Below are positions 4,096-21,391 of a stretch of 64,000 bases of DNA, one piece after another. Every line of letters begins with the position of its first letter. The first letter of the stretch is position 1. The stretch covers positions 2,046,001 through 2,110,000 of the forward strand of contig NZ_CP136920.1 in assembly GCF_033100135.1 (NCBI RefSeq), written 5' to 3'. This stretch comes from Rubellicoccus peritrichatus (lineage in GTDB: Bacteria; Verrucomicrobiota; Verrucomicrobiia; Opitutales; Cerasicoccaceae). A program made the translations under genes and the position numbers. The notes beneath the pieces were generated by a model. It did not search any database. It was not told where the DNA came from and saw only the letters and a list, made by a program, of their open reading frames with translations.

Positions 4096-4665
4096 TCAGC
4101 CAGCCTTCTTAGCCTTTTTCCGAGCTGCCTTGACTATTTCTTCCATCTCACTGGCTTTTTGAGATGCTCCCGGTTGCTCCTTCATCGTCTTAGTTTGATC
4201 CTCAGATAATTTCAAAATGGAATCACCATTTTCTTCCATATTTTCATTTTTGGAAGCTGCTGAAGCTTCATAGAGGTCTATATTGGCCTGCATCAGTTCA
4301 TGCATTTCAGGGATTTTTGCAGCAATTTGAGCTAGGCGAACTACAGTTTTATATACGGAAACTGGGACATCTTCAAAATCTGAACCTTCATTTAATGAAG
4401 GTTGACTGATTTTGACTAAGTTCGCAGGTAAGCCAGAATCTTCAATTATATCTTCAAGGCGAGCTATTAGCAATTGTGCCTTAGCATTAGGATCTTTGGA
4501 TGCATTATGACATAGGGCACGTAGGACTTTAGGCGATGGATCAAGCGTTCCCTTTGTGAGTCGTGACATAGTGGCGGAATCTATTTTCGCGGCTTCGCCA
4601 ATTTCAAGTTTGGTCGAATTTTCCTGAAAGAGAATTTGTTGGAGTGTGGATCCAAATGAGTTCAT
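4096..4665 (-). CDS. Prophage repressor-like HTH protein
   Basis: 189 residues from the ATG chosen here; a TTG 36 bases further upstream would add 12 residues, but the conserved part begins with MNSFGSTLQQILF. The N-terminal helix-turn-helix is clear: TKLEIGEAAKIDSATMSRLTKG, XRE/Cro type, at about 18-40. The middle is acidic, and the C-terminus is strongly basic (AARKKAKKAG) after a helical stretch. It has no LexA/CI-type Ser-Lys protease signature, so autocleavage is not indicated. It faces away from the early operon, across about 90 bp containing a TTGAC/GTCAA inverted repeat. That position is typical of the lysogeny repressor. Confidence 0.7.
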   Translation of the reverse strand: MNSFGSTLQQILFQENSTKLEIGEAAKIDSATMSRLTKGTLDPSPKVLRALCHNASKDPNAKAQLLIARLEDIIEDSGLPANLVKISQPSLNEGSDFEDVPVSVYKTVVRLAQIAAKIPEMHELMQANIDLYEASAASKNENMEENGDSILKLSEDQTKTMKEQPGASQKASEMEEIVKAARKKAKKAG

Positions 4666-4708
4666 GAACTGCTTTAAAAGAAAAAATTGAGAAAAAGTCA
4701 AATTTCTT

Positions 4709-4756: not shown

Positions 4757-4939
4757 ATGAGTGTAATCGAAGCAACAAAGAAAAATATCCAGCGAGTATT
4801 CCGCTCGGCAATTAAGCTAAATGGGTCGAGTCCAAGGGTAGTAGCTGAATTAGAAAAATTTCAGAAACACGTGGATGCTTTCGTAGAGAAGAAGGAAGAC
4901 AATTCAAGCAACTCTATCAAAAACCAACCAGCCGCCTAA
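4757..4939 (+). CDS. Small early phage protein
   Basis: 60 residues and the first gene rightwards from the repressor operator, where phages carry Cro/CII-like or antirepressor proteins. The sequence is mostly helical and basic at the N-terminus (MSVIEATKKNIQRVFRSAIKLNG), then acidic/Asn-rich, ending QPAA. I see no clear helix-turn-helix. The 15 bases across its stop (4931-4945) are identical to those at 5747-5761, before the ParB-like gene. Function unknown. Confidence 0.55.
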   Translation: MSVIEATKKNIQRVFRSAIKLNGSSPRVVAELEKFQKHVDAFVEKKEDNSSNSIKNQPAA

Positions 4940-5024
4940 GTCATGAACGCAAAAGGACACCAACTCAGTTTACGATCATTTATTCCAGAATGGTGCCAAC
5001 ATGAAAACACAAGTGCAAGCAGCA

Positions 5025-5414
5025 TCAGAATCCATGGTTCTTATAAAACTTACGCTCTTCTTCGGACATGTCATCTGGAGGACTAATAACCATACGATAT
5101 GAACGATCAGAATTCATCAACATTTGGACAGCTTCCTGTATCTCTTCGTCATCTGGAGGATTATGTGGATCTAGTGGAAGAAGCATATCCGGATCGCACT
5201 CAGCGTAAGCATTCTCCTTCAGGCATGTATTCCATAGATGTTTTACCTGATTCAAAATCAGTGATTCAGGGGGTTGTTTCTTATGTCCTCCGACCATGTG
5301 GAGTTGAATGCAGCAAACAAAGAAGCCATCGCCGGTATGCTTGTATCTTGGCCAAAGGAAATGTCCCTCTGCAGTTGGGAGTGATTCGTAAGGGCTAATA
5401 AACCAATATTCCAC
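5025..5414 (-). CDS. Small acidic phage protein of unknown function (antisense)
   Basis: 129 residues on the minus strand inside the rightward early operon. The GTG start at 5414 is preceded by AGGA (8-9 bases upstream) and, further up, by TTGACA plus the TTCTGATTAT motif seen at the repressor operator. The C-terminal half is acidic and proline-rich (LLPLDPHNPPDDEEIQEAV, SPPDDMSEEERKF), which reads like real protein. An overlapping + strand frame of 99 codons has poorer composition and is taken as its shadow. The segment holding this gene and the next is flanked by 15-bp direct repeats, suggesting it was inserted. Function unknown. Confidence 0.55.
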   Translation of the reverse strand: MEYWFISPYESLPTAEGHFLWPRYKHTGDGFFVCCIQLHMVGGHKKQPPESLILNQVKHLWNTCLKENAYAECDPDMLLPLDPHNPPDDEEIQEAVQMLMNSDRSYRMVISPPDDMSEEERKFYKNHGF

Positions 5415-5444
5415 GATAATTCCTATCCAAAATATTCATTTTAA

Positions 5445-5461
5445 ATAATCAGAACTGTCAA
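5445..5461 (-). promoter_or_regulatory. Second copy of repressor-operator-like motif
   Basis: Read on the minus strand, TTGACA (5461-5456) is followed after one base by TTCTGATTAT (5454-5445). The same ten bases follow TTGACC at the repressor operator (4710-4728). Here they lie 31 bp upstream of the GTG of the antisense gene and 25 bp before the + strand gene at 5486. Confidence 0.4.
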
Positions 5462-5485
5462 CTTACAAAATAGGCAATCAAAGAT

Positions 5486-5755
5486 ATGAACGTTCTAATC
5501 GAAACTTTTCTTGAAAACGAATCTCTCTATCTAGACGTCATTGTAGAGGTCAAATTAGACTATGATCTCGAAGAGGGTGACATGGTAAATGTCTACGATG
5601 CTGAAACCCAGAAAATCATTCCACAACTGATTTGGGACGATCTGATCGATGATGGAAAATATGAAGAGATCGTAGAATCTGCATTTGCTGGTGAAAGCTA
5701 TTATGCAGGAAAGCTTATTCCAGAATCCACAACTGAAACTCTGAAAGCCGCCTAA
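5486..5755 (+). CDS. Small acidic early phage protein
   Basis: 89 residues and strongly acidic (many Asp and Glu, for example LDYDLEEGDMVNVYDAETQ and DDLIDDGKYEEIVES). Such highly acidic small early proteins can be DNA mimics or inhibitors of host proteins, but nothing specific is recognised. It ends LKAA. Its stop and the next start are only three bases apart, within a 15-bp sequence repeated at 4931-4945. It is divergent from the antisense gene across 71 bp. Confidence 0.6.
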   Translation: MNVLIETFLENESLYLDVIVEVKLDYDLEEGDMVNVYDAETQKIIPQLIWDDLIDDGKYEEIVESAFAGESYYAGKLIPESTTETLKAA

Positions 5756-5758
5756 GTC

Positions 5759-6607
5759 ATGGGTTACAAAGATCAGTATCCTCTTACTTCTATCACTGCT
5801 GATTCTGCCTTTCAGATACGGGCGAAGATGGATAGTAAATGGATTAAAGAGCTGTCAGAACTTTATAAAGCTGGTGCAACTATTGATCCTGTTACGGTTT
5901 ATGTAACTAACAGGAGAGATCCAGACTTTCTTTTGGTTGATGGTTTTCATCGATTTGAAGCTGCGAAAAAAGCAGGACAGAAAAGCATCTCAGTAAAAGT
6001 CATTGAAGGTTCAAGGGCTGATGCAATGAAAGCAGCTTTGGGTGCAAACGTTCGTCATGGAATTCAAAGGACAAACGCTGACAAACGTAGGGCAGCAGAG
6101 GTCGCTATTAAAGAATTTCCAGATCTATCAACTGCAGAATTAGCACGAATTTGTGGTGTTTCCTGGACATGTATTGATAATACTAAACAAGAATTTCAAT
6201 CTTCTTCGATTGAGGGTTCAGAATCAGAAAAGGCAATTGGTCGAGATGGGAAATCGAGACCTCGAAGACTCAAAGTAAAGAAGCCAATTTCTTCATCCAA
6301 ACGGGATGATGTAAAACATGATAATCAGGTTAGTAGCAGTAGTAAGGCCTCGTCCGGTCGAGCCACCGGGCGGGGTTCTGCTAAGAAACCAGCAGCTGAC
6401 AAAAATGAAGTCGATGAATGTCCAGTTCCGCCACGGCTTGAGCTGAGACCTTCACCTCCAGCATCAGAGCGCACAGTAATTTCTTTTAAAGAAGCAGCGG
6501 TCCTATCAATCCCGCTATTAGAAAAAAGCCTCCCGCACCTCACGAAAGACGAAGAAGCACAAGCCCGTCTCGTGATCTCTACATTCAAAAACGGATACGC
6601 TGCTTAA
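5759..6607 (+). CDS. ParB-like nuclease/DNA-binding protein
   Basis: 282 residues. Residues 1-90 form a ParB/sulfiredoxin-like domain: an N-terminal SITADSAFQIR box, then VTVYVTNRRDPDFLLVDGFHRFEAAKKAG (the conserved DGxHRxxAa core at about 62-72). A helix-turn-helix follows at about 120-140 (STAELARICGVSWTCIDNTKQ), then a long low-complexity Ser/Lys/Pro linker and a short C-terminal helix ending GYAA. Phages use such proteins as nucleases, transcription regulators or partition proteins. No ParA partner is next to it, so chromosome-style partitioning is unlikely. It sits in the early operon and probably binds phage DNA. Confidence 0.8.
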   Translation: MGYKDQYPLTSITADSAFQIRAKMDSKWIKELSELYKAGATIDPVTVYVTNRRDPDFLLVDGFHRFEAAKKAGQKSISVKVIEGSRADAMKAALGANVRHGIQRTNADKRRAAEVAIKEFPDLSTAELARICGVSWTCIDNTKQEFQSSSIEGSESEKAIGRDGKSRPRRLKVKKPISSSKRDDVKHDNQVSSSSKASSGRATGRGSAKKPAADKNEVDECPVPPRLELRPSPPASERTVISFKEAAVLSIPLLEKSLPHLTKDEEAQARLVISTFKNGYAA

Positions 6608-6611
6608 TGCC

Positions 6612-6944
6612 ATGAACGACCTGGTCCTCAAAGAAACCATACGCGAGACTGTGCGTGATACCTTCAGCAAGATGCTGATGGAGTCTGCTAGGCCTTGGGT
6701 TTCTGGGGACCAGGAAGCGGCATTGTATGTTGGTTTCAAATCACGGGATAAGTTCAAAACATGGGCTGATAAATGGGGCGTAGTGCCTCGCCGTGAAGAT
6801 GGAATCAATCTCTGGAAACGCAGTGATTTAAACAAAGCAGCTGAGAAAGCACACAGACCAACTCTAAAGGAAGCCATGGGGTTAGAGCCTTGGCAGTATC
6901 TCTACAAAAAATCCAAAGATAAGAAAAAGGGAAAAGCAGCATGA
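6612..6944 (+). CDS. Small basic DNA-binding protein, excisionase-like
   Basis: 110 residues. After an N-terminal helix, residues 30-75 (SGDQEAALYVGFKSRDKFKTW, then VVPRREDGINLWKRSDL) resemble the MerR/Xis-type winged helix-turn-helix, in which a helix-turn-helix is followed by a basic hairpin and a W-KRSDL ending. The C-terminus is highly basic (KKSKDKKKGKAA). It begins four bases after the ParB-like gene and overlaps the next gene by four bases (ATGA). An excisionase or regulatory role is plausible; there is no integrase in the window to test the link. Confidence 0.6.
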   Translation: MNDLVLKETIRETVRDTFSKMLMESARPWVSGDQEAALYVGFKSRDKFKTWADKWGVVPRREDGINLWKRSDLNKAAEKAHRPTLKEAMGLEPWQYLYKKSKDKKKGKAA

Positions 6945-7315
6945 ACAACAACCATCATTGGATAGAAAGATTTGGTAGCCCCAAGGCACCAAGACTACAG
7001 CCTATCGACTTCATCACTTTTCTCATACTGGTGATTCTTATAACGCTTGCCAGTGTTGTGATCGTATCAGCCTTCAATACACCCAAGGCAGATATCGAAG
7101 ACTTTCAATCTGTTGCCTGCATGGTGTTTGGGGAGATCCCAGAACGGCCAGCAGTAGGGTTTCATGAAACACAGGCAGCAGATGATTTTCATGAAAACCA
7201 AATCTGCCTCTGGGCGAAAATGATAGCCACAGAGACGTATGCTGACGACACGACACAACCCGGTTCAAGCCGTGGAAACACTCATCAGCAGCCAGAGGCA
7301 GAGTTACTTTCTTAA
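6941..7315 (+). CDS. Single-pass membrane protein of unknown function
   Basis: 124 residues with one hydrophobic helix at about 23-45 (FITFLILVILITLASVVIVSAF), followed by a hydrophilic part with two cysteines and several histidines. It overlaps the preceding gene by ATGA, so it is translationally coupled. It is not recognisable as a holin. It is one of few early proteins that do not end in Ala-Ala. Confidence 0.55.
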   Translation: MNNNHHWIERFGSPKAPRLQPIDFITFLILVILITLASVVIVSAFNTPKADIEDFQSVACMVFGEIPERPAVGFHETQAADDFHENQICLWAKMIATETYADDTTQPGSSRGNTHQQPEAELLS

Positions 7316-7363
7316 TTCAAGCCACGATTATTCCTTCGTTTGTTTGTTGTTTAGTTAGTTAGC

Positions 7364-7393
7364 GACAGGAGCGGGTGCAATTCCCGCCCTGTC
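7364..7393 (+). other. Strong hairpin resembling a tRNA acceptor/T-arm minihelix
   Basis: GACAGG (7364-7369), a bulged A, and GCGGG (7371-7375) pair fully with CCCGC (7383-7387) and CCTGTC (7388-7393) around a seven-base loop TGCAATT. The 11 pairs and seven-base loop mimic a tRNA acceptor stem stacked on a T arm (loop consensus TTCRANY with one change). There is no T tract after it, so it is not a simple terminator. It sits in the 100-bp gap before the gene at 7416. Confidence 0.45.
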
Positions 7394-7415
7394 CGACTGA
7401 ACGCAGTATTTCACT

Positions 7416-7889
7416 ATGAATAAACCAAAGATTACCTATCTCCGGGAAAAGGGAGAGTTTGTCGTCATTCGCTATTTAGTGGATGGAGACGAACACCAAA
7501 TCAAGTCATCGGATATTGTATCTGAAGGCTTTGCTGAAGCTCTTGATGAATTAGCTGAAGCCGTTTGCCGTGTCTGTCAGTTTCCCATCGAAGACGCTGA
7601 TAAAATCAGTGTTCTGGGATTCACTGTCAGCAAGAAAGGCGACAATGATCAAGTAACCTTCCAGGCCAAGAAAGATCTTGGTTGTGGAACACCATTAAAC
7701 ATCCCAACGCCAAATCGTCTACTCGAAGAAGACAGTGGAGATTCATCCATACTGCTTGATGCAAAGAGCAGAGAATCTCTCAAGAAGCTTCAAGCTGAAG
7801 CAGCAAGCTACATCGAGAACAGTCGGACACTTCGCCAGATCTTCCTTCCTCTTTTTGAAGAAGAGCAAGAGCACGAAGAAGCAGCTTAA
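7416..7889 (+). CDS. Early phage protein of unknown function
   Basis: 157 residues. The N-terminal half is a small beta-rich domain (ITYLREKGEFVVIRYLVDGDEHQIKS, SVLGFTVSKKGDNDQVTFQAKK), followed by an acidic helical C-terminal part ending QEHEEAA. It directly precedes the SSB-like and exonuclease genes, and proteins with this layout are commonly found next to phage recombination genes. I cannot name the family. A stem-loop at about 7903-7924 (AGGCCCTC...GAGGACCT, one mismatch) lies in the gap before the next gene. Confidence 0.6.
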   Translation: MNKPKITYLREKGEFVVIRYLVDGDEHQIKSSDIVSEGFAEALDELAEAVCRVCQFPIEDADKISVLGFTVSKKGDNDQVTFQAKKDLGCGTPLNIPTPNRLLEEDSGDSSILLDAKSRESLKKLQAEAASYIENSRTLRQIFLPLFEEEQEHEEAA

Positions 7890-7962
7890 CCTTTAACAAT
7901 AAAAAAGGCCCTCGTGCAAGAGGACCTAAACTTAACTAAAACTAAAAAACGGAAATCATAAT

Positions 7963-8634
7963 ATGTCACTAACAGCAAGAGAAAATAAAAGCGATAGCAT
8001 TGAACCAATCTCAGTCGGGATCCATCAAGCCGTTTGTTACGGTGTTTACGATCTGGGTGAGCAATGGCAGGAATGGCAGGGCAAGGGCAAATGGAGCCGC
8101 AAAGTCTGTGTTGTCTGGGAGCTGCCTGAAGAACGTATTGAATTTGAAGACAAAGAAACAGGTGAACCAGTCAATATTCCTCGTTCTGCAAGTCAGATTT
8201 ATACGCTGAGTCTTGATCCTAAATCACGCCTGCGTAAAGACCTGGAAAGCTGGAGAGGTCGACCATTTACACAGGATGAACTGGAAGGCTTTGATCTAAA
8301 ACAATTGCTTGGTGTGAACTGCCAGTTACAGATTGTTCATAATCAAGGTTCCGGAAAGCACGCTGGAAAGGTGTTTGCCAACATCCAGAACATCATGGCT
8401 TTGGGACGAGGTGCATCAAAGCTCACACCAGAAAACAAAGTCGCTTTCTTTTCCTTTGAGGAATGTGAAGAAGGCGAAGCACCAATCTTCCCTGAGAAGA
8501 TGCCTGAGTGGCTTCAGAACAAGGTCAAGGACAGTAAGACCTGGAAAGATGTCACTGGAACATCACCACAGGATGAAGAGCCACCAGCCACACCAGAAGC
8601 TGAAATCGTGGAAGACGAAGACGTTCCTTTCTAA
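7963..8634 (+). CDS. Phage single-stranded-DNA-binding-like protein
   Basis: 223 residues, an OB-fold-type phage protein. Its first 150 residues resemble phage ssDNA-binding/replication proteins (ISVGIHQAVCYGVYDLGEQ, KVCVVWELPEERIEFED, GVNCQLQIVHNQGSGKHAGKVFANIQNIMAL). The C-terminus is low-complexity and acidic and ends VEDEDVPF, matching the SSB tip (DDxIPF type) that recruits SSB partners. It lies directly before the exonuclease gene, with a good ribosome binding site (AAAGGAGA) for that gene. It likely coats ssDNA in phage replication and recombination. Confidence 0.7.
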   Translation: MSLTARENKSDSIEPISVGIHQAVCYGVYDLGEQWQEWQGKGKWSRKVCVVWELPEERIEFEDKETGEPVNIPRSASQIYTLSLDPKSRLRKDLESWRGRPFTQDELEGFDLKQLLGVNCQLQIVHNQGSGKHAGKVFANIQNIMALGRGASKLTPENKVAFFSFEECEEGEAPIFPEKMPEWLQNKVKDSKTWKDVTGTSPQDEEPPATPEAEIVEDEDVPF

Positions 8635-8669
8635 GGGCTTCTAATCACCAGGAAAGGAGACTTTAAAGA

Positions 8670-9461
8670 ATGTTGGTATTTGATATAGAAACAAGGGCAT
8701 TGGCGTTGGGGCAAATTGAAAGGGTTTGCGGAGCTTTTGATAGTGAGAGCTTTGACCTTTCATCCCTAACCGTTGATGAGCTACGTCTTTATGCTGATAA
8801 AGCAGAAGGTGGAGCACCACCGAAAGGAGCTAGAAAGGATGTAATCATTCAGTTTGTTCAAGAACGTGATGAAGTCCTGGAAGCCGTTTTGCTTCATGCA
8901 AAAGCAAAGTATCTGGAATTCATTGTAGAGAAGGCAGCACTGCATGCTGAAACTTCAGAGGTTCTGGCTATTGGCTTTCAAACTCCGGAATGCGGTTTTG
9001 CTTGGCGTGGTCTTGATTCTGCCACTGAGAAAGAATTGATCGAAGGCTTCTGGCAGGATTGCTGGGCTGAGATTACACAAGGTGAGCAAATCATTGGTTT
9101 CAACATTCTTGAATTTGATCTTCCTTATCTTGTTCGCCGCTCATACATGCTCAGGGTTCCAGTCCCTGAGTGTGTGCGGGATGGTCGTTATTGGAGCAGC
9201 AACTTTGTTGATCTACTCAATGTATGGAGAGCTGGCCAATACCGCGAATGGATCACGCTTGATCGCATGGCGCGTGCCTTTGGTATTGGTAGCAAGAACG
9301 GTTCCGGAAAGGACTTTGCAAAGCTCTGGGATGACGACCGTGATCAAGCAAAAGTTTATCTGCAGAACGATTTATATCTCACTTATTCACTTGCTGAACG
9401 CATGGGCTTCAAGGCCTCTGTTAAGGAAAGCACGATCTTAGATGGAAAGGGTGTAGCATGA
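8670..9461 (+). CDS. PolB-type 3'-5' exonuclease (DEDD) with SAP-like insert
   Basis: 263 residues. Exo I motif is FDIET (D5, E7), Exo II is GFNILEFDLPYL (D150), and Exo III is LQNDLYLTYSLAERMGF (D234, a DEDDy-type pattern with Y236 or Y239 nearby). Between Exo I and Exo II lies an insertion (about residues 32-65: LSSLTVDELRLYADKAEGG, KGARKDVIIQFVQERD) that looks like a SAP DNA-binding motif. No polymerase domain follows, so it is a stand-alone predicted exonuclease acting with the SSB-like protein. It overlaps the next gene by ATGA. Confidence 0.75.
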   Translation: MLVFDIETRALALGQIERVCGAFDSESFDLSSLTVDELRLYADKAEGGAPPKGARKDVIIQFVQERDEVLEAVLLHAKAKYLEFIVEKAALHAETSEVLAIGFQTPECGFAWRGLDSATEKELIEGFWQDCWAEITQGEQIIGFNILEFDLPYLVRRSYMLRVPVPECVRDGRYWSSNFVDLLNVWRAGQYREWITLDRMARAFGIGSKNGSGKDFAKLWDDDRDQAKVYLQNDLYLTYSLAERMGFKASVKESTILDGKGVA

Positions 9462-9640
9462 GCATAATCGTAGCCATCATTACAGCTCTATTATTCCTCT
9501 TGGTTGGTGCTGTTGGAGTCTGTCTGCATATCAATGAAAAGCTGCAGGAATCGAAAGATTACAACAAACGTGTTTACCAGGAAGTCATGAAGCTTCGTAG
9601 GGAAGTTCAAATGAATCAAAAACTAAAGGAGGCGGCGTGA
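9458..9640 (+). CDS. Small membrane-anchored protein
   Basis: 60 residues: a transmembrane helix at about 3-25 (IIVAIITALLFLLVGAVGVCL) and a cytosolic coiled-coil-like tail ending KLKEAA. It overlaps both neighbours by four bases. The last codons encode KEAA and at the same time form the ribosome binding site (AAGGAGG) of the next gene. Function unknown; it could tether replication proteins to the membrane. Confidence 0.55.
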   Translation: MSIIVAIITALLFLLVGAVGVCLHINEKLQESKDYNKRVYQEVMKLRREVQMNQKLKEAA

Positions 9641-10089
9641 GTCATTACATAAAAATATCCATGCCTTGCTTAGCTTGGTTAGAGAGTTTGGCAAATATTC
9701 GAGAAATGAGCTCTGATGATTTGATCAGTGAATTTGTTGAGAAGCGTTTTAAAACTGAAGGAGACAGAGCAATTGAAGCAACCCTCTACATGAAAGCAGG
9801 TGCTGAAGTTGCAGGTGTTCCATATAAGCGGTTTATGGTGCTTTCGAAAGGCCCTAAGTCTGACTTGGTGCGCCAATGTGCGATCTACCTTGCAAACAAG
9901 GAAGCCAATATTCCACAGAAAGTAATCTCAAGTGTTGTTGGGTATGTTTATTACAATTCAGTTTTTCGACCTTGTAACCTCATTGCAGACTTGAAGGACC
10001 AAAACTCAAAAGATGGTGAATTGGTCAGAGAGCATCTTGATGCAATACGAACCAGGGTGCATCAGCTTAAACAGAAGGAGGCGGCGTAA
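9637..10089 (+). CDS. DnaA-domain-IV-like protein, paralogue 1 (degenerate signature)
   Basis: 150 residues, GTG start overlapping the preceding stop. The C-terminal part (about 77-120) follows DnaA domain IV: LVRQCAIYLANKEANIPQKVISSVVGY aligns with the helix bundle ending in the DnaA signature. The signature itself, normally DHTTV, reads YNSVF (106-110), so the key Asp-His-Thr contacts with the DnaA box are lost. The next gene is a clear paralogue, with the same layout and an intact signature. No AAA+ domain is present. It may act as a partner or modulator of its sister. Confidence 0.65.
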   Translation: MSHYIKISMPCLAWLESLANIREMSSDDLISEFVEKRFKTEGDRAIEATLYMKAGAEVAGVPYKRFMVLSKGPKSDLVRQCAIYLANKEANIPQKVISSVVGYVYYNSVFRPCNLIADLKDQNSKDGELVREHLDAIRTRVHQLKQKEAA

Positions 10090-10550
10090 TGACTGCAAAG
10101 TTTTTAAATGGCCAAGAGTGCCTCCTAAACGTTACAGATGACTGTTGGGAATGGTTGAAGACGCTTGCTGCAAAGCGTGAAATCAAAACTGAATCAGTCG
10201 TGACAGGTTTTCTGATGCAGCGTTTCTACGTTGAGGGAGATCAATCATACATTGTAACGGATTATATAAATGCAGGTGCAGCGATTGCTGGTCTTTCATT
10301 TAGTGATTTCATCAGTGGTGATAAGCGCCAGCCATTGGCTTTGATTCGTCAGTGTGTTATGTATCTCGCCTGTGTTGAGGCCAAGGTTTCACAGAAGGCA
10401 ATTGCAAGCATACTTGGGTATTATGACCACACAACGGTTCATTATGCCTGTAAGCAAATTCGTTCATTAAAAGATCAAGATTCAACCGATGGGAATGCGA
10501 CAAGAGGTTACCTCGAAGCAATACTATCTAATGTAAAGGAGGCTGCATAA
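10089..10550 (+). CDS. DnaA-domain-IV-like protein, paralogue 2
   Basis: 153 residues. Residues 85-127 match DnaA domain IV: LIRQCVMYLACVEAKVSQ, then ASILGYYDHTTVHYACKQI, with the box-binding DHTTV motif intact (113-117). The first 80 residues form a separate helical domain shared with the preceding gene (ECLLNVTDDCWEWLKTLA against YIKISMPCLAWLESLA). It starts one base into the preceding stop (TAATG) with AAGGAGG before it. It probably binds a DnaA-box-like site in the phage origin; which site is unknown. Confidence 0.7.
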   Translation: MTAKFLNGQECLLNVTDDCWEWLKTLAAKREIKTESVVTGFLMQRFYVEGDQSYIVTDYINAGAAIAGLSFSDFISGDKRQPLALIRQCVMYLACVEAKVSQKAIASILGYYDHTTVHYACKQIRSLKDQDSTDGNATRGYLEAILSNVKEAA

Positions 10551-10801
10551 TGGCTTACTTTTCAAATGGCTCAGAAGGTGCCTATTTGGATAATCAATGT
10601 GCTGAGTGCCCAATTGGTAAACACCATGATGCACCATGCCCAGTCTTACTGCAGACTCAATTATACAACTATGCTCAGTGTGGTAATGAGAATCTGGAAG
10701 CAGCGCTCAATGTCACAGTGAATAAACATGGTGACTGCCAGATGAAGAAAGTCTTGGAGGAATTCTTGCCTGACACTGAAGAAGAGGAAGGTGAATCATG
10801 A
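10550..10801 (+). CDS. Cysteine-rich small phage protein
   Basis: 83 residues with five cysteines, four in the N-terminal half (CAEC at 18-21, C30, C44) plus C60, and a His pair near C21. The pattern YFSNGSEGAYLDNQCAECPIG is found in many phage replication modules as a small conserved protein of unknown role, probably metal-binding. The C-terminus is acidic (EEEEGES). It starts at the TAATGG overlap with the preceding gene and overlaps the resolvase gene by ATGA. Confidence 0.6.
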   Translation: MAYFSNGSEGAYLDNQCAECPIGKHHDAPCPVLLQTQLYNYAQCGNENLEAALNVTVNKHGDCQMKKVLEEFLPDTEEEEGES

Positions 10802-11265
10802 AGGCTGGTCAGATCGTCATAGGAATTGATCCAGGCAAGTCAGGAGGGCTTTGTGCTCTTGGTGAGTCAACAGCTAGGTCTAGGCCAATGCCTGAGCCTA
10901 CAGCCGTCAAGGAATGGCTTGAATCGCTTATTGATCAGTTTGGGCGTGAATCACTCTTAGCCATCATTGAAGAGCCACCGCGCTTTGTTGCAGGTAACAG
11001 CAACACTGGTTCAACAATGATTGTATTAGGGGAGAATTACGGCCTCATGAAAGGGCTGATTATTGGTCTTGGAATACCAATGCGCAAAGTGCGTCCTCAA
11101 GAATGGCAGAAAGGCTTACCAGGCCTCAAAGGCCTCAAAGGTGCAGAGCGTAAGCGAGCACTCAAGAACTTGGCCAATGAGCGATTCCCTCAACTAGCAC
11201 CAACACTTAAGTCATGTGATGCCATTCTCATTGCTCAATGGGGCAGGCTGAAGGAGGTCATGTGA
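10798..11265 (+). CDS. RuvC-like Holliday junction resolvase
   Basis: 155 residues with an RNase H-fold resolvase pattern: IVIGIDPGKSGGLCAL (catalytic D11), AIIEEPP (E58 or E59), a central helical region, and SCDAILIAQW (D141, followed by Ala in the usual D-A-x-xIA context). Length is that of phage RuvC-like enzymes. It would resolve recombination or replication intermediates before packaging. It is the last gene before the antisense KAP insertion, and only nine bases separate its stop from the end of that gene. Confidence 0.8.
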   Translation: MKAGQIVIGIDPGKSGGLCALGESTARSRPMPEPTAVKEWLESLIDQFGRESLLAIIEEPPRFVAGNSNTGSTMIVLGENYGLMKGLIIGLGIPMRKVRPQEWQKGLPGLKGLKGAERKRALKNLANERFPQLAPTLKSCDAILIAQWGRLKEVM

Positions 11266-11274
11266 ATGAAGCTC

Positions 11275-12594
11275 TTATCCAAACATTTTCAGGAGATCAA
11301 TCGTTTCGGCCATATCTCGCGAAACGGGATCACGTCTATTGCGCAGGTCTACTGCATTTCTAACAACCTTCTTCATCTCATCTGTTTTAAGATACGTGAA
11401 CTGATAATTTATAAATTCTTCGCTTCTAATAGGGCTGTAAGCGAGAAGCCTTGCTGCAATTCGAATCAAGAGACCATTGTATTTAGGGCGATTATTGAGG
11501 CTCCCACCGAATATGCGAAAAGCTTCCAGCATTGCACTAACATCTGCCGTCAGTTGCTTATAAATCTTGGGATAAATATTAGCGAGATAGCAGAAGAAAA
11601 AGAGCAATTCGAAATCTTCAATTTCACGAACCTGCTTGATCTTAATTGTGATAATCAAGCGATCGATTATTCGCTTAACGGACCGGGCATTGAGGTCTCT
11701 CATGTTGTCAAATGTTTCGGATTTGTAAAACCACTCATGAAGCTGCATGAGCAAGACATCAGAGGGGTGTCGAGGTCTATTGTTCGCATCATCAATAATC
11801 TGCTGGATGTAAGAGAGAGCAAGACCATTACAACTGGATTCGGGCAATTTCAGTTGATAATCAAACAATCGATCGAGATAACGTATTCCGTCATAATTTT
11901 GACCATAAAGGCCTTTGATTGTGTTTCCGAGCTGGTCAGTGTCTATTCCCATAAGGAAGTGAACTCCATCGATCCCAAATATGTGTTTAATGCGTTCAAG
12001 CATATTGACAGCATATACAGGGCGACAGCGATCGAGCTCATCTATGATAATGATCAATCGCTTATTAGGAAATTGTTTAGCCCGTTTATTCAACGCTGTT
12101 TTGAAATCATGAATGGCAAGAGTAAGGGCCTGGTGATTATCAATAATCTGTCGAGCCATGGAGCGATTCTGCTCAGCTTCTGCTTCCAGTTCTTTGAGGT
12201 CAAAAAGTCCCATCGATGCCTTTTTTGCAGAATTGTAGGAAATATGACGTATAATCGTTCCTGCATCTGTGAGAATTCTATCTTTGGAGAAACTAACTTC
12301 TTCGATTTTAAGTGCTGTAAAAATCTCGGAAAAGAGTGGAGCAAATGGTTCTTCGCCATGATCATGTTCCCAGGCATTAAACAGAACAATATCAATATTA
12401 TTAGTGGATTGTTCACAGTGCTTCTTGAAACGTTCAAGAAACCAAGTTTTACCCATGCCCCAAGATGCATCCAGTGCTACCGTCAAGTGTGTTTGAGTTA
12501 CAGCAAACATCTTAAGCAGGTTATCGGCGAAAAACTTTCTGCCTCCTATATCATCATCACCAAATGCATTTTCTACAGTCTTTTCATCAGCCAT
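11275..12594 (-). CDS. KAP-family P-loop NTPase (antisense moron, candidate defence gene)
   Basis: 439 residues. Walker A is ASWGMGKT (43-50), followed by the KAP-typical VLFNAWEHDHGEEPFAPLF (about 70-88), a helical insertion, and Walker B IIIIDELDRCRP (181-192) then VNMLERIKHIF. KAP ATPases are STAND-related and frequent in bacterial defence islands. This copy lacks the usual membrane helices in the P-loop insertion, so it is probably soluble. It lies antisense in the replication operon, fitted between the resolvase stop (9 bp) and the replication initiator (62 bp), which is how superinfection-exclusion morons are placed. A TTGACA box lies about 30 bp before its start. Confidence 0.8.
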   Translation of the reverse strand: MADEKTVENAFGDDDIGGRKFFADNLLKMFAVTQTHLTVALDASWGMGKTWFLERFKKHCEQSTNNIDIVLFNAWEHDHGEEPFAPLFSEIFTALKIEEVSFSKDRILTDAGTIIRHISYNSAKKASMGLFDLKELEAEAEQNRSMARQIIDNHQALTLAIHDFKTALNKRAKQFPNKRLIIIIDELDRCRPVYAVNMLERIKHIFGIDGVHFLMGIDTDQLGNTIKGLYGQNYDGIRYLDRLFDYQLKLPESSCNGLALSYIQQIIDDANNRPRHPSDVLLMQLHEWFYKSETFDNMRDLNARSVKRIIDRLIITIKIKQVREIEDFELLFFFCYLANIYPKIYKQLTADVSAMLEAFRIFGGSLNNRPKYNGLLIRIAARLLAYSPIRSEEFINYQFTYLKTDEMKKVVRNAVDLRNRRDPVSRDMAETIDLLKMFG

Positions 12595-12656: not shown

Positions 12657-13106
12657 ATGAAATCAGATATTTGCTTCTTTCCAGAACCTTTCTGGTCAAA
12701 GACAAATGGCTGGTCTGTTTGTGATGTGGATATTCAGTCATGGGCCAAAGATTATCCAGGTATCGACGTTGAGATACAGCTTCGTCAGATGCACAATTGG
12801 CTGATCACCAATCCACGAAAGGCCAATAAAAAGGATTGGAGAAAGTTCATCTGTCATTGGCTAGGAAAAGCTTACAGCAAAGCACAGATTCCAGAGGATT
12901 ATAAAACAACGAGAACATTTAATAAGCCAAAGCCTGAAGAGTCACACACAGATAAAGAGCCAAAAGGATGGAAAGAAGCATTGAAGTTTGTCGTTGGCGA
13001 CCAACTCGCACGCTTCAAAGACATGCCTTGGACTCACTTGCCAATTTCCGTCCGGACAGAGATTCGCCAACTACTAAAGAAAATGGAGAATGCACAAAGT
13101 GTATAA
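12657..13106 (+). CDS. Phage replication initiator/helicase-loader-like protein
   Basis: 150 residues from ATG 12657, chosen because GGGAAGGTGA lies 8 bases upstream; an open extension further left would run into the KAP promoter region. The N-terminal part (FWSKTNGWSVCDVDIQSWAKDYPGIDVEIQLRQMHNWLITNP, seen as DVEIQLRQMHNWL...KKDWRKFICHWLGKA) is the conserved helical segment found in phage and plasmid initiator proteins of the DnaT/O type. The C-terminus overlaps the helicase gene by 17 bases. It probably recruits the DnaB-like helicase encoded next. Confidence 0.65.
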   Translation: MKSDICFFPEPFWSKTNGWSVCDVDIQSWAKDYPGIDVEIQLRQMHNWLITNPRKANKKDWRKFICHWLGKAYSKAQIPEDYKTTRTFNKPKPEESHTDKEPKGWKEALKFVVGDQLARFKDMPWTHLPISVRTEIRQLLKKMENAQSV

Positions 13107-14448
13107 TAAACCGCCTCATAACATTGAATTAGAACAAGCGCTGCTTGCATGTATTCTCTTAGAGGGTGGGAAAGAAACCATGCCTCTCTGTGTAGAATCT
13201 GACATTCACCAAGATGTGTTCTATAGCACGAAGCATCAGCTCATCTGGAATGCACTTCTTAGCCTCTACAAGGAAGGTGTTGAGCCTTTAAATGAAATCT
13301 TCCTAACAGAGCAGCTTAATAAGACCAATGAGCTAGATCAAGCAGGTGGTGATGTTTACTTTATCGAACTGACTAATCGAATTGATACACATATTGGTAT
13401 CCAGCATTACATTGATCAAGTTCGAGAGCATTATCTAGGGCGTCAGATCATTCGAGCAGGAACAAGGCTTATTGAATCCGTTTATGATGGTGTAGATGGG
13501 CAAGAGCTTGTCAGGAAAGCAGAGAAAGAAGTATTCGGACTCACCAGAAAAACCGTTGTCAGCCTCAACCCTATTGGTCCCTCAGTAACTCGTGTGATAG
13601 AAGCGATCAACGGAGCCAGGGTAAACAGACAAGGTGCTATATCAGGTGTAAGAACGGGCTTATACAGTCTTGATCGTGTGACAGGTGGTTTTCGTCCTGG
13701 ACAACTCATCGTGGCTGCAGCAGGCCCCAAGGAAGGCAAGAGCAGCCTAATGCTTAGATGTGTTGATAATACTGCATTACCAGAAGAGGGAGAACCAGGA
13801 GGCGTCTTGATCTTCTCAATGGAGATGCAGACAGATGAACTTACAGAACGCCTTATTGCCTATCGGGGATACATCAATCTCGAACACATAAAGGAAGGAT
13901 TCACAAATCAAGATGCTGAACTCGTTAAAGCAGCTCACGAAGTAGAAGCCGCGCCCATCTGGATAAACGATACAAACCTAGATGTATTCAAACTGAGGAC
14001 CATGGCACGCCGTCATATGTCACAGCACCCCAACACCAAGCTCATTTGCGTTGATTATCTAGGCCTGTTTGAACGCACAAGTAGAAAGCAGGAAGAACGA
14101 GACCGCTATGAAGAAGCCACTAGAGAGTGCAAGAAGATGGCTCAAGAGCTAAACGTGCCAGTTCTCCTATTAGCTCAGCTCAACAGGGCAGGGCGCAAGG
14201 AAGGCCAACGCCCCCACGGTTACGACATCAAGTTCGGCTCAGGAGCAGAAGCAGATGCTGATAAGGTCATCCTCATCTACACCAAGAAAGATGGCAGCAA
14301 ACAGGTCATCGTAGACTTCCAACGAAATGGAACCAAAGGAGACATAGACGTAGACTGGACAGACTACTGCACACGCTTCGATGACAAAGGACAATCACCA
14401 GCATCACTCGCAGCTAAGCAACCAGAACAAACAGAGGTAGATCTGTAG
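13090..14448 (+). CDS. DnaB-type replicative helicase
   Basis: 452 residues, the usual DnaB length. It has an N-terminal DnaB domain (NIELEQALLACIL...GVYFIELTNRI region, 10-110), a linker helix, and a RecA-fold C-terminal domain starting GVRTGLYSLDRVTGGFRPGQLIVAAAGPKEGKSSL, with Walker A AGPKEGKSS at 211-219. Sensor and DnaB motifs follow: FSMEMQTDELTERL, then LICVDYLGLF (Walker B) and LLAQLNRAGR. Walker A has KEGKS in place of the common xTGKT, as in several phage DnaBs. It would unwind the phage origin with the preceding initiator. Confidence 0.92.
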   Translation: MHKVYNKPPHNIELEQALLACILLEGGKETMPLCVESDIHQDVFYSTKHQLIWNALLSLYKEGVEPLNEIFLTEQLNKTNELDQAGGDVYFIELTNRIDTHIGIQHYIDQVREHYLGRQIIRAGTRLIESVYDGVDGQELVRKAEKEVFGLTRKTVVSLNPIGPSVTRVIEAINGARVNRQGAISGVRTGLYSLDRVTGGFRPGQLIVAAAGPKEGKSSLMLRCVDNTALPEEGEPGGVLIFSMEMQTDELTERLIAYRGYINLEHIKEGFTNQDAELVKAAHEVEAAPIWINDTNLDVFKLRTMARRHMSQHPNTKLICVDYLGLFERTSRKQEERDRYEEATRECKKMAQELNVPVLLLAQLNRAGRKEGQRPHGYDIKFGSGAEADADKVILIYTKKDGSKQVIVDFQRNGTKGDIDVDWTDYCTRFDDKGQSPASLAAKQPEQTEVDL

Positions 14449-14979: not shown

Positions 14980-15495
14980 ATGAGTGCCCGGAAAGCCGCC
15001 AAGAAAGCTGTATCGAAGAAGAAGCGTCAATTAGTCGATTCGTATGTCGCGTTGGCAAAGGCCTTGGGCTACACCCGCCAGCAGGTTGATAACTGGAAGA
15101 AGGATCCTCGCTATAAGGATGAAGTTCCTCAACCAGAGGCAAATGGAAAGCATGATGTTGCTTCATGGAAGACGTTTATCAAACGGCACAATCTGAGGGG
15201 CGATGAGGTCTCTGAGGATGTGCTGCTTAAGCGCCGGAAAGAGGAATTGGCGATTGCGAGCCAGGAATTCAAGTTGGAGAGGGAACGAGGAAAGTATGTT
15301 GAGCGTGAGGCGGTGGCGAAGAGCTACAAGGAGAATCTTAGCATTCTTTTTCGAGAGCTTAGGCGACGTTTCGAGTCTACAGCTCCACCACAATACAAAG
15401 GACAACCAGAATCGGAATGTGCTCAGATTAATCGAAGGGAGTTGGATGAGCTCCAGGAGCAAATGCATGAAAGGGCGAAACGCATTACTGAATGA
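14980..15495 (+). CDS. Terminase small subunit-like protein
   Basis: 171 residues from the ATG at 14980 (MSARKAAKKAVSKK); an in-frame start 39 bases upstream lies inside the SWIM gene and is less likely. The N-terminal HTH (VALAKALGYTRQQVDNWKKDPRYKD) is like the phage Nu1/terminase-small DNA-binding domain. A long charged helix follows (KRRKEELAIASQEFKLERERGKYVEREAV), the arrangement seen in lambda-like small terminases. It overlaps the large terminase gene by four bases. It would recognise the packaging site. Confidence 0.75.
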   Translation: MSARKAAKKAVSKKKRQLVDSYVALAKALGYTRQQVDNWKKDPRYKDEVPQPEANGKHDVASWKTFIKRHNLRGDEVSEDVLLKRRKEELAIASQEFKLERERGKYVEREAVAKSYKENLSILFRELRRRFESTAPPQYKGQPESECAQINRRELDELQEQMHERAKRITE

Positions 15496-17391: not shown

Positions 17392-17601
17392 ATGCCAATA
17401 AAGGCTGAGTTTCGGCATGTAGAGATTGATCCAGAAAAGGATTTACTTACTCGTGAAGAGCTTGCTTGGACACTAAGGGTTCACAGGTCTTATATCGATG
17501 CTATGTGCAAGGCTGGTTTCTTTATGCCTGCTGGAACAGCTACTCTGAAAGAGGCTCGAGATTGGTTGAGGAAGAATAGGTGTTTTCGGAAAAGTTATTA
17601 G
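17392..17601 (+). CDS. Small HTH protein in the head operon
   Basis: 69 residues. LLTREELAWTLRVHRSYIDAMCKAGFFMPAGTATLKEARDWLRKN contains an HTH of the AlpA/excisionase type (REELAWTLRVHRSYIDAM). In lambda-like phages a small gene lies here between terminase and portal. It starts two bases after the terminase stop. Its last 62 bases overlap, antisense, the end of the AbiC-like gene, so the insertion of that cassette may have altered its C-terminus (NRCFRKSY). Confidence 0.6.
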   Translation: MPIKAEFRHVEIDPEKDLLTREELAWTLRVHRSYIDAMCKAGFFMPAGTATLKEARDWLRKNRCFRKSY

Positions 17602-19562: not shown

Positions 19563-19844
19563 ATGGCGAAAGGCTACACAGCTACGGGTATCATTCATCG
19601 GCTTGGATTTGAGCAATCTGAGCTGGAATCTTGGCTGTCCGAGCTCAAGACGGAGCTGAGATCCGGTAATGGGCAAGTGATTGAGTGGGAATCTGCCTCT
19701 GAGAGTGCCAAGAAGGTGTTTTCCGGCTATTCTCTGAACACTATCGAGGCGATTGAGGAAGTGCTTTACGCGCTGGCTGAGCTCGATCCTGAAAACTACG
19801 GGAAATCTGACATCCCGCCTTACACGAGGGCTTCATTCGCATGA
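19563..19844 (+). CDS. gpW-like/head operon small protein
   Basis: 93 residues between terminase and portal, the place of gpW in lambda. The second half (NGQVIEWESASESAKKVFSG, then TIEAIEEVLYALAEL) resembles the gpW layout of beta hairpin followed by a helix. The first half is HTH-like (YTATGIIHRLGFEQSELESWLSELKTEL). It overlaps the portal gene by four bases. Weak family match; the call rests on gene order. Confidence 0.55.
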   Translation: MAKGYTATGIIHRLGFEQSELESWLSELKTELRSGNGQVIEWESASESAKKVFSGYSLNTIEAIEEVLYALAELDPENYGKSDIPPYTRASFA

Positions 19845-21391
19845 TCAGGGCACTCAGAACAGCGGCAACAAAGGGTTTTGGCTCCCTCTATTATTGGATG
19901 GGCGGCGGTAAGCTCTATGCGAAGCCTAGCAATGAGCGAAGCATTGAAAGACTGACTGCTGATCACAAAGACCTACTTTCTGAGCTGGATCATGAGGATA
20001 TCGTTTCTGCCACGCGCTTTCTTTACAATCGATTCCCAATGCTCTCTGGAGCAATTGACGATAAGGCCAATCATGTGGTTGGTAATGGTTGGGGAGCGCA
20101 GTTTGAAGGAACGGACCTGACCTGGGGCGAGCAGTCTGAGGCCTGGTTAAAAGATCACTTCCAAATCTGTGATGTGCGTGGTCGACCGTTCGATATGAAG
20201 AACGATCTGCATACAGGAGTGGTTACTCTGATGCGTGATGGCGAGTATTTCATCGTTCTGACCAAGAACAAGGCAGGCTATCCAATGTTTCAGTTTTTGG
20301 AGTCGCATCGGATCCGTTGCCGTAAGTTCACTCCGGAATACAGAGGCCTTCAGGTTCGCAATGGGATTGCTTACAGTGCTCAAGGAAGACCGCTTTTCTA
20401 TCATTTCTTTGGAGATTCATCTGCTGATGATCGTTGGATCAGTGCGCGTGATATCATTCATGTGTTTGATCCAAAGTGGTTTTCGCAGGGCAGGGGAGTT
20501 TCACCGCTGGTTACTGGGATCCTTGATTGGCTGGATGTCTTGGATGTCCGGGAGAATGAAAAGTATGCTCAGCGGTTGTTCTCGATGCTGGCGTTGAAAC
20601 ACAAGAACGAGTCAGGTAAGCCAGACAGTTTTGCACAGCGATTTGGTAAGAGTGGAAATACTCGAACAGCAACTTCCAGCGATGCAGATAACGACTTTGA
20701 AGCGGAAGAACTGGTTCAGGAATTCCGTAAGGGGCAAATCCGCTGGCTAAAGATTGGTTCGGAAGATGTGGAGTCATTTCTCTCCAATCGTCCCACCTCG
20801 AATCAACAGGCTTTTGAGCAAGCAATTCTGCGAGGTGCCTTTGCAGGAATCAATTGGAGCTATGAGCAGTCTTATGATGGCGGGAAGCTGTCAGGTGCTC
20901 CTGTGCGTCGGGATATTGCCAAGAATCAGCGATCTGTTGAGCGGATGCAGTGCATTTTGTTTTATCCATGGTTTCGGCAGGTTGGTTTCAGTGTGTCGGT
21001 TGCGATTGAGCTTGGTTTTCTGACTGCACATTCAGAGTGGTTCCGGTTCACACCTCAGTTGCCAGCCAAGATGACGGTCGACGCTGGAAACGAATCCAAG
21101 ATTGAACTGGAAGAATACCGTATCGGCTTTTCCACCCTCAAAAAGATTACTGGAAGCAAAGGCGACTGGTGGCAGGAAGTCAGGCAGCAACGTGAGATCG
21201 AAGCTGATGATTTGCTGACTCGCGGAAAGCGCCTTGCTGAGAATCACGAGATCCCACTCGCCGCTGCAATATCACTTTTGGAGATGCGAACCTCCAGCGG
21301 CAATCCTGGTATGGTTGAGCCACAACCTGAACAGGAAGAAGAACCCGAAAACGAAGACGAAGAAGCTGAAAAGGAAGAACAAGCAGCATGA
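19841..21391 (+). CDS. Portal protein, lambda family
   Basis: 516 residues. It follows the lambda portal pattern: N-terminal RLTADHKDLLSELDHEDIVSATRFLYNRFPMLSGAIDDKANHVVG (key part RARxLYRNxPxxxGAI-like), FQFLESHRIR, DIIHVFDPKWFSQGRGVSPL, then DVLDVRENEKYAQ and the C-terminal clip/wing region. The C-terminal tail is a Glu-rich stretch (EQEEEPENEDEEAEKEEQAA), which also ends in Ala-Ala. It would form the dodecameric DNA channel at one capsid vertex. It overlaps the next gene by ATGA. Confidence 0.88.
   Translation: MIRALRTAATKGFGSLYYWMGGGKLYAKPSNERSIERLTADHKDLLSELDHEDIVSATRFLYNRFPMLSGAIDDKANHVVGNGWGAQFEGTDLTWGEQSEAWLKDHFQICDVRGRPFDMKNDLHTGVVTLMRDGEYFIVLTKNKAGYPMFQFLESHRIRCRKFTPEYRGLQVRNGIAYSAQGRPLFYHFFGDSSADDRWISARDIIHVFDPKWFSQGRGVSPLVTGILDWLDVLDVRENEKYAQRLFSMLALKHKNESGKPDSFAQRFGKSGNTRTATSSDADNDFEAEELVQEFRKGQIRWLKIGSEDVESFLSNRPTSNQQAFEQAILRGAFAGINWSYEQSYDGGKLSGAPVRRDIAKNQRSVERMQCILFYPWFRQVGFSVSVAIELGFLTAHSEWFRFTPQLPAKMTVDAGNESKIELEEYRIGFSTLKKITGSKGDWWQEVRQQREIEADDLLTRGKRLAENHEIPLAAAISLLEMRTSSGNPGMVEPQPEQEEEPENEDEEAEKEEQAA

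What the first reader, a model, noticed from the sequence alone, without database searches (positions are those of the whole stretch)
4757..10550. Early phage proteins repeatedly end in Ala-Ala
Eight of the twelve + strand genes from 4.7 to 10.8 kb end in AA (QPAA, LKAA, GYAA, GKAA, EEAA, and KEAA three times); the portal ends QAA. Codons differ (GCCGCC, GCTGCT, GCAGCA, GCAGCT, GCGGCG, GCTGCA), so the dipeptide rather than the DNA is repeated, although KEAA also doubles as a ribosome binding site in three cases. A C-terminal AA is what ClpXP reads on ssrA-tagged proteins. The phage may time the removal of early proteins with ClpXP or mimic tmRNA tags.
Basis: partly seen in the sequence, partly recalled or inferred. 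Interest (0 to 1): 0.7.

Follow-up and report, generated by a model that had tools for sequence, protein, structure and literature searches.

The report
Phage proteins ending in two alanines
A run of early genes in a bacterial prophage does end in Ala-Ala far more often than chance; part of this comes from ribosome-binding sites and repeated DNA at the gene junctions, and whether the rest marks the proteins for destruction is untested.

Summary
Eight of 12 + strand ORFs at 4757-10801 end in AA, against 1 of 23 later phage genes, 13 of 1052 host genes, 36 of 2219 ORFs in 159 viral loci and 11 of 447 ORFs in 20 loci beside related portal genes.

The eight are not independent. Two share an identical 16-nt junction. 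Three are AAGGAGGC(G/T)GC(G/A)T, a Shine-Dalgarno (SD) sequence running into the next start. In other viral DNA, GGAGG in frame at the last codons goes with AA in 8 of 34 ORFs, against 18 of 1913 without SD, so the KEAA trio is best read as a translational-coupling by-product. Counting the repeated junction once, 4 of the 8 other ends are AA (P 1.6e-6 at the host rate, before post hoc choice); these are unexplained.

ClpXP turnover remains open. For: the host tag ends MAA, host ClpX keeps the tag-reading residues, and three prophages linked by the exonuclease have 9 AA ends of 48 genes against 7 of 255 in one of their hosts. Against: no AA depletion in the host, host ClpX itself ends in AA, 0 of 14 distant homologs of the AA-ending proteins end in AA, and no tag likeness beyond AA.

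The parts
4757..4939 (+). g1, 60 aa, first + strand gene after the divergent HTH gene; ends QPAA, followed by TAAGTCATG
   Evidence: not kept by the strict caller
4930..4945 (+). junction repeat AGCCGCCTAAGTCATG, copy 1
   Evidence: family D16
5486..5755 (+). g3, 89 aa, ends LKAA
   Evidence: no Pfam or PHROG match
5746..5761 (+). junction repeat AGCCGCCTAAGTCATG, copy 2, identical to 4930-4945
   Evidence: family D16
5759..6607 (+). g4, 282 aa, ParB-like, ends GYAA
   Evidence: phrog_1033 E 1.2e-17; PF02195 E 1.5e-5, just under its cut-off; 3 distant homologs do not end in AA; not kept by the strict caller
6612..6944 (+). g5, 110 aa, ends GKAA in an ATGA overlap with the next ORF
6941..7315 (+). 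g6, 124 aa, ends LLS (not AA)
   Evidence: not kept by the strict caller
7416..7889 (+). g7, 157 aa, ends EEAA; next gene starts after 73 nt, so no junction explanation
   Evidence: phrog_9403 E 3.3e-6
7963..8634 (+). g8, 223 aa, ends DVPF (not AA); tail resembles the SSB acidic tip and is kept in the 5 homologs looked at
   Evidence: (phrog_862)
8670..9461 (+). g9, 263 aa, 3'-5' exonuclease-like, ends GVA (not AA)
   Evidence: PF10108 E 1.1e-8
9458..9640 (+). g10, 60 aa, ends KEAA; AAGGAGGCGGCGTGA, SD for the GTG start at 9637
   Evidence: not kept by the strict caller
9637..10089 (+). g11, 150 aa, paralog of g12 (38% identity), ends KEAA; AAGGAGGCGGCGTAATG
10089..10550 (+). g12, 153 aa, DnaA C-terminal HTH domain, ends KEAA; AAGGAGGCTGCATAATG
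   Evidence: PF08299 E 1.4e-10
10550..10801 (+). g13, 83 aa, ends GES (not AA)
   Evidence: not kept by the strict caller
19841..21391 (+). portal protein, ends EEQAA in an ATGA overlap; only AA end among the 23 later + strand genes
   Evidence: PF05136 E 4.6e-35

Best explanation
The AA run is a composite that arises largely at gene junctions. In g10-g12 the Shine-Dalgarno sequence of the next gene, AAGGAGG, lies in frame in the last codons, so Lys-Glu and a GNN codon are set by the ribosome-binding site, and Ala-Ala fills the spacer before the overlapping start (the layout is shown by the sequence; coupling is inferred). g11 and g12 are also paralogs. In g1 and g3 one 16-nt junction sequence is present twice, so these ends are probably one DNA event, by duplication or recombination at a gene boundary (inferred). 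The ends of g4, g5 and g7 remain unexplained; some of these may be degrons. No coordinated degradation programme is needed for most of the pattern.
For: GGAGG in frame at codons -4 to -2: AA in 8 of 34 viral ORFs, against 18 of 1913 without an SD and 2 of 216 with an SD elsewhere in the last 20 nt; 56 ORFs matching the scan pattern set apart (8 AA). Fisher P 4.5e-9, or 2.1e-4 (4 of 28) with locus L189 taken out of the SD class. KEVA (11) and KEAA (9) are the two commonest ends of 78 open AAAGGAGG-N5-TAATGA junctions in viral contigs, some of them related to each other. Viral locus L189 has ORFs at 9851-10970 ending KEAA, EEAA, KEAA, KEAA, all on GGAGGCTGC. The one AA end among 9 exonuclease homologs (L069) also sits on GGAGG, and the helicases ending RRAA in L064 and L065 sit on CGGAGGGCCGCCTGATG. 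Repeats at the junctions. Paralogy. That an SD inside an overlapping gene constrains the C-terminus is stated in PMC6728339 (passages).
Against: The SD forces only K, E and the first base of codon -2; Ala at -1 is commoner than that explains (GC at the codon -1 place in 24 of 86 in-frame TAATG junctions, 5 of 20 not matching the scan pattern, against 7 of 123 other GGAGG-7-ATG starts; P 0.014 for 5 of 20). Five of the eight ends have no strong SD and g7 is not at a tight junction. Counting g1 and g3 once, 4 of the 8 non-SD ends are AA (P 1.6e-6 at the host rate, 1.1e-5 at 2%). Coupled host genes show no AA excess (2 of 135). In exonuclease-linked prophages most AA ends have no SD, and the integrases keep LAA at 55-56% identity.
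Confidence: 0.58

Rival explanations
1. C-terminal degrons: the early proteins carry an Ala-Ala tail that host ClpXP reads like an ssrA tag, so they are cleared when early transcription stops.
For: AA excess over host and late genes. Host tag ends MAA; clpP and clpX adjacent; all six tag-contacting ClpX residues kept. Terminal Ala-Ala is the most important element of the E. coli tag and changing the antepenultimate Leu has only a modest effect (PMC7652416 passages). Three exonuclease-linked prophages: 9 AA ends of 48 genes against 7 of 255 in one host (P 1.5e-4; 6 ends and P 0.006 after dropping two SD helicases and a probable flank gene), with integrases ending PLAA, ALAA, ALAA although two of the three pairs are only 55-56% identical. 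Several tails here look disordered (by eye).
Against: Three ends have an SD cause and two share DNA. No AA depletion in the host; host ClpX ends DDAA. 0 of 14 distant homologs end in AA, while the tail of g8 is kept in 5 of 5 looked at. The portal, a late protein, also ends in AA. Class-wide loci show no cluster (11 of 447, at most 3 in 12). Six of eight tails have K or E at -3; in S. mutans charged residues within the last three places (ADL, DEL) stopped ClpX-dependent decay, though a charge at -3 alone was not among the variants I saw (PMC10782952 passages).
Confidence: 0.2
2. Modular boundary sequences: short junction sequences are reused because new genes enter the early operon by recombination at them, carrying the AA codons along.
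For: Identical 16 nt at 4930 and 5746, 816 bp apart; the three-copy 19-nt family at g10-g12; g11 and g12 are paralogs.
Against: g4, g5 and g7 have different codons and contexts. No relative without the 816-bp unit was found, so an insertion is not shown.
Confidence: 0.12
3. Chance and selective reading: one striking run among very many windows and dipeptides.
For: The dipeptide and the window were chosen after the fact; only 4 independent non-SD ends need explaining.
Against: 4 of 8 at 1.24% gives P 1.6e-6; no comparable run in 717 viral runs of 12 ORFs or 235 host runs.
Confidence: 0.1

Closest known systems
Termination-reinitiation at overlapping genes with an intragenic Shine-Dalgarno motif (PMC6728339, passages)
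   Same: SD lies in the last codons of the upstream gene; stop and start overlap (GTGA, TAATG) at g10/g11, g11/g12, g12/g13; the C-terminus is constrained.
   Different: Coupling was not measured here; g1, g3, g4 and g5 lack a strong SD and g7 has no adjacent gene.
ssrA/tmRNA tag and ClpXP C-terminal degrons (PMC7652416, passages)
   Same: Free C-terminal Ala-Ala; the host has tmRNA with a tag ending AA and a ClpX with the tag-reading residues.
   Different: Residues before AA do not resemble the tag; -3 is mostly charged; no degradation data.
C-terminal composition biases of bacterial proteins (PMC7246954, passages and one section)
   Same: Terminal residues and the last codon are biased, partly through overlapping start codons.
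   Different: That work reports Lys and Arg enrichment, depletion of most hydrophobic residues at the last place, and NNA codons before UGA; an AA run in one operon is not described in the parts I read.

Membership tests
SD-coupled overlapping gene junctions | Stop of the upstream gene overlaps the next start | tested here: met
   g10/g11 GTGA, g11/g12 and g12/g13 TAATG
SD-coupled overlapping gene junctions | SD motif inside the end of the upstream gene | tested here: met
   AAGGAGG in g10, g11, g12; not met for g1, g3, g4, g5, g7
SD-coupled overlapping gene junctions | Translation of the downstream gene depends on the upstream gene | not testable with these tools
   needs reporter assays
ClpXP C-terminal degron (ssrA-like) | Free C-terminal Ala-Ala | tested here: met
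   8 of 12 ORFs
ClpXP C-terminal degron (ssrA-like) | Leu or the host's Met at -3, as in LAA or MAA | tested here: not met
   -3 is P, K, Y, K, E, E, E, E; host tag. The cited work calls the -3 effect modest, so this counts against tag likeness more than against degradation
ClpXP C-terminal degron (ssrA-like) | A ClpX able to read Ala-Ala, with ClpP | tested here: met
   GYVG, TRDV and GRKH loops identical to chain 8e91_A in the alignment; clpP beside clpX, E 5.5e-89, 298.5 bits, just under the NCBI cut-off of 308.6. By sequence only
ClpXP C-terminal degron (ssrA-like) | ClpX-dependent turnover | not testable with these tools
   needs pulse-chase or reporter decay
ClpXP C-terminal degron (ssrA-like) | Tail kept in homologs | tested here: inconclusive
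   0 of 14 homologs end in AA (3 of g4, 1 of g5, 1 of g12, 9 of the portal; 27-35% identity), too distant to decide, and only part of the portal homologs were looked at

The most novel reading that the evidence does not exclude
The phage marks a set of early proteins (at least g1, g3, g4, g5 and g7) with encoded Ala-Ala degrons that host ClpXP reads, so that early replication and regulatory proteins are cleared together without tmRNA; the LAA-ending integrases of exonuclease-linked prophages would be a second case of the same habit.
Probability: 0.16. Interest if true: 0.65.

Novelty: new member of a known kind. Interest (0 to 1): 0.3.

Why it matters
It shows how a ribosome-binding site placed inside a gene end can write a protein tail: KEAA and KEVA recur as phage C-termini where AAGGAGG precedes an overlapping start. 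Anyone counting C-terminal degrons in phage genomes should set such junctions apart first. If the residual AA ends turn out to be ClpXP signals, this would be an encoded clearance signal shared by a whole early operon.

Tried and rejected
Conservation of the AA ends in close relatives could not be tested. The early proteins are nearly orphan: viral scans with g9, g12, the terminase and g4 gave one distant locus in all; the genome scan with the terminase gave none; g7 was found in 0 of 87 other genomes, g11 in 0 of 272, g5 weakly in 1 of 285. Against annotated phages, g4 had 4 records, g7 none, g12 2, g8 40; I fetched 3 of 4, 1 of 2 and 2 of 40 of these. The exonuclease g9 was found in 7 other genomes of 285; it does not end in AA here, and 1 of 9 homologs looked at does (L069, on an SD).

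Portal homologs lie in 40 other genomes; 9 were looked at.

Exonuclease-linked prophage loci were first listed without a total (by hand 13 AA of 166 longest ORFs in 7 loci, G+C 52-66%). L062 and L065 lie in that host; L064 is from another genome of the same genus and has no host count of its own. The three share genes (helicase and 195-aa protein 95-98% identical), so these are not independent counts.

Idea that AA at the SD junction is only spacer DNA: not sufficient, since GC at the codon -1 place is rarer at other SD starts.

Idea that coupling in general favours AA: rejected. Viral coupled ORFs without an SD gave 2 of 495, coupled host genes 2 of 135. The 'conditioned' class was mis-built (context too short to see the pattern); one search replaces it for the SD comparison.

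A tRNA-like look of 7360-7400: no tRNA, no Rfam match there. A fold of g8 without an alignment was useless (mean pLDDT 37) and was not searched.

Limits: host gene calls come from my own hexamer scorer, viral and most prophage-side calls from longest-ORF picking, so all backgrounds hold some false ORFs. The 20 loci (two of them only 3.5 kb) may hold host DNA. The 23 late genes were counted by eye and typed into.
Full report
What is there. The window is 2,046,001-2,110,000 of a 5.8-Mb single-contig bacterial genome. Between about 4 and 40 kb it holds what I read as a prophage (ends and integrase were not sought): a divergent gene with a weak HTH/repressor match (4096-4701, minus), an early block, a DnaB-type helicase (13090-14448), a GpA-type terminase (15492-17390), a lambda-type portal (19841-21391) and a ClpP-like protease gene (21388-22545). 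The early block runs from g1 (4757) to g13 (10801).

Observation. A stricter coding-score caller kept 7 of the 12, and 5 of these end in AA; g1, g4, g6, g10 and g13 were not kept, so the status of the short g1 and g10 rests on position and context. In 80 host stretches (1.6 Mb) 13 of 1052 called genes end in AA, with 9.8 expected. Among the 23 later + strand phage genes only the portal does. In 159 viral loci 36 of 2219 ORFs end in AA (33 of 1674 and 3 of 545), and no run of 12 ORFs has more than 4. In 20 loci next to related portal genes of the same class, 11 of 447 ORFs end in AA, at most 3 in a run of 12. The naive probability of 8 of 12 at the host rate is 2.6e-13.

The ends are not independent. 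AGCCGCCTAAGTCATG is present at 4930-4945 and 5746-5761 without a mismatch, spanning the last two codons, the stop and the next ATG. The ends of g10, g11 and g12 form a second repeat family, AAGGAGGC(G/T)GC(G/A)T, and g11 and g12 are paralogs with 38% identity.

Shine-Dalgarno cause of KEAA. AAGGAGG, read in frame, gives Lys-Glu and fixes the first base of the next codon; the spacer before an overlapping GTGA or TAATG start is then the last two codons. I tested this on other viral DNA. Of 78 open AAAGGAGG-N5-TAATGA junctions the commonest ends were KEVA (11) and KEAA (9); some contigs are related to each other. Leaving out ORFs that match the scan pattern (8 AA of 56), AA ended 8 of 34 ORFs with GGAGG at codons -4 to -2, 2 of 216 with an SD elsewhere in the last 20 nt, and 18 of 1913 with none. 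Four of the eight come from one locus, L189, which itself shows KEAA, EEAA, KEAA, KEAA; with L189 taken out of the SD class it is 4 of 28, Fisher P 2.1e-4. The SD does not explain everything: at in-frame TAATG junctions the codon -1 place reads GC in 24 of 86 cases (5 of 20 not matching the pattern), against 7 of 123 at other GGAGG-7-ATG starts, so Ala at the last codon seems itself preferred there, for a reason I cannot give.

What is left. Outside the SD trio, and counting g1 and g3 once, 4 of 8 ends are AA (g1/g3, g4, g5, g7 against g6, g8, g9, g13). This has P 1.6e-6 at the host rate and 1.1e-5 at 2%, before allowing for the choice of dipeptide and window after the fact. I regard it as probably real and unexplained.

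Related prophages. Three prophages that carry a relative of the exonuclease (L062 and L065 in one genome, L064 in another of the same genus) have 9 AA ends among 48 called genes, against 7 of 255 in sampled stretches of the first genome, where 8.3 are expected (Fisher P 1.5e-4). The three share genes, so the counts are not independent. Two of the nine are helicases ending RRAA on CGGAGGGCCGCCTGATG, an SD junction again, and one is a probable flank gene; without these three P is 0.006. The integrases (phrog_1) end PLAA, ALAA and ALAA; the first is 55-56% identical to the other two, whose tails differ from it. This is the best sign found for protein-level selection of AA ends, though these tails are rich in Ala and Pro.

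Degron reading. The preconditions are met. The host has a tmRNA with tag GENKIVEFAPQGELMAA, clpX and next to it clpP. ClpX has the GYVG, TRDV and GRKH loops that hold Tyr153, Val154, Thr199, Val202, Arg228 and His230 in E. coli (residue roles from passages of PMC7652416; Thr199, Val202, Arg228 and His230 counted out on the alignment to 8e91_A, which I take from its length and numbering to be the E. coli chain; Tyr153 and Val154 placed by the GYVG motif). The same paper says that terminal Ala-Ala is the most important element and that changing the antepenultimate Leu raises KM modestly. Against it, AA ends are not avoided in the host, host ClpX itself ends DDAA, the portal, a late protein, also ends in AA, and no tail resembles the tag beyond AA. 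Passages of PMC10782952 report that GFP fusions ending ADL and DEL were not degraded in S. mutans, while EAAL was; six of the eight tails here have K or E at -3, a case those passages do not cover. Homologs of g4 (3), g5 (1, a short match), g12 (1) and the portal (9) do not end in AA, 0 of 14, at 27-35% identity. As a contrast, the tail of g8 (DEDVPF) is kept: five distinct homologs end VPF, IPF, TPY, IPY and VPY.

Literature seen. PMC6728339 (passages) states that an SD inside an overlapping gene constrains the C-terminus. PMC7246954 (passages and one section) describes general C-terminal biases. A search asking for 5 of 6 terms (phage, early proteins, ClpXP, degradation, C-terminal degron, lytic) gave no paper; two other searches gave listings only, from which the papers named here were picked in part. 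This covers only the held open-access library.

Verdict. The timed-degradation reading is possible for about five proteins; it has circumstantial support and points against it, and no direct test.

Noticed in passing
7963-8634: g8 (phrog_862, unknown function) ends DEDVPF, and the five distinct homologs looked at end in [VIT]-P-[FY]. This resembles the DIPF acidic tip of bacterial SSB (PMC10143822 passages), so g8 may be a phage ssDNA-binding protein. A fold without an alignment was too poor to test this.
   Followed up: partly
L062:3952-5178, L065:16199-17404, L064:14753-15958: Integrases of three prophages of the same order end PLAA, ALAA, ALAA, like the end of the E. coli ssrA tag; the first is 55-56% identical to the others. 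A possible integrase degron.
   Followed up: partly
L009:1462-2766 (minus): Host ClpX itself ends in DDAA, the dipeptide its tag-reading loops would bind.
   Followed up: no
47-1190: Adjacent ShosA-like (DprA family, E 2.2e-59) and ShosT-like (E 1.1e-25) genes by PADLOC. The ShosA ORF starts close to the window edge and matches only the C-terminal half of the model.
   Followed up: no
11275-12594 (minus): KAP-family P-loop NTPase in reverse orientation inside the early module; matches PADLOC candidate PDC-S20 (E 3.5e-70), so a possible defence or exclusion cargo gene.
   Followed up: no
17540-19460 (minus): Two reverse-strand genes between terminase and portal: a putAbiC-like protein and a DUF2806/Abi_alpha-like protein; no PADLOC match. 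Possible abortive-infection cargo.
   Followed up: no
4946-5745: The stretch between the two 16-nt junction copies holds a minus-strand ORF (5025-5414, no Pfam match) and g3; it may be an insertion into the early operon.
   Followed up: no
L189:9851-10970: A viral contig with ORFs ending KEAA, EEAA, KEAA, KEAA, each with GGAGGCTGC at the end: an independent case of the same junction pattern.
   Followed up: partly
28527-31066: A weak sulfotransferase-like ORF (E 7e-4, under its cut-off) and a 651-aa ORF with a trypsin-like SGDSGNP stretch seen by eye and not confirmed by Pfam.
   Followed up: no
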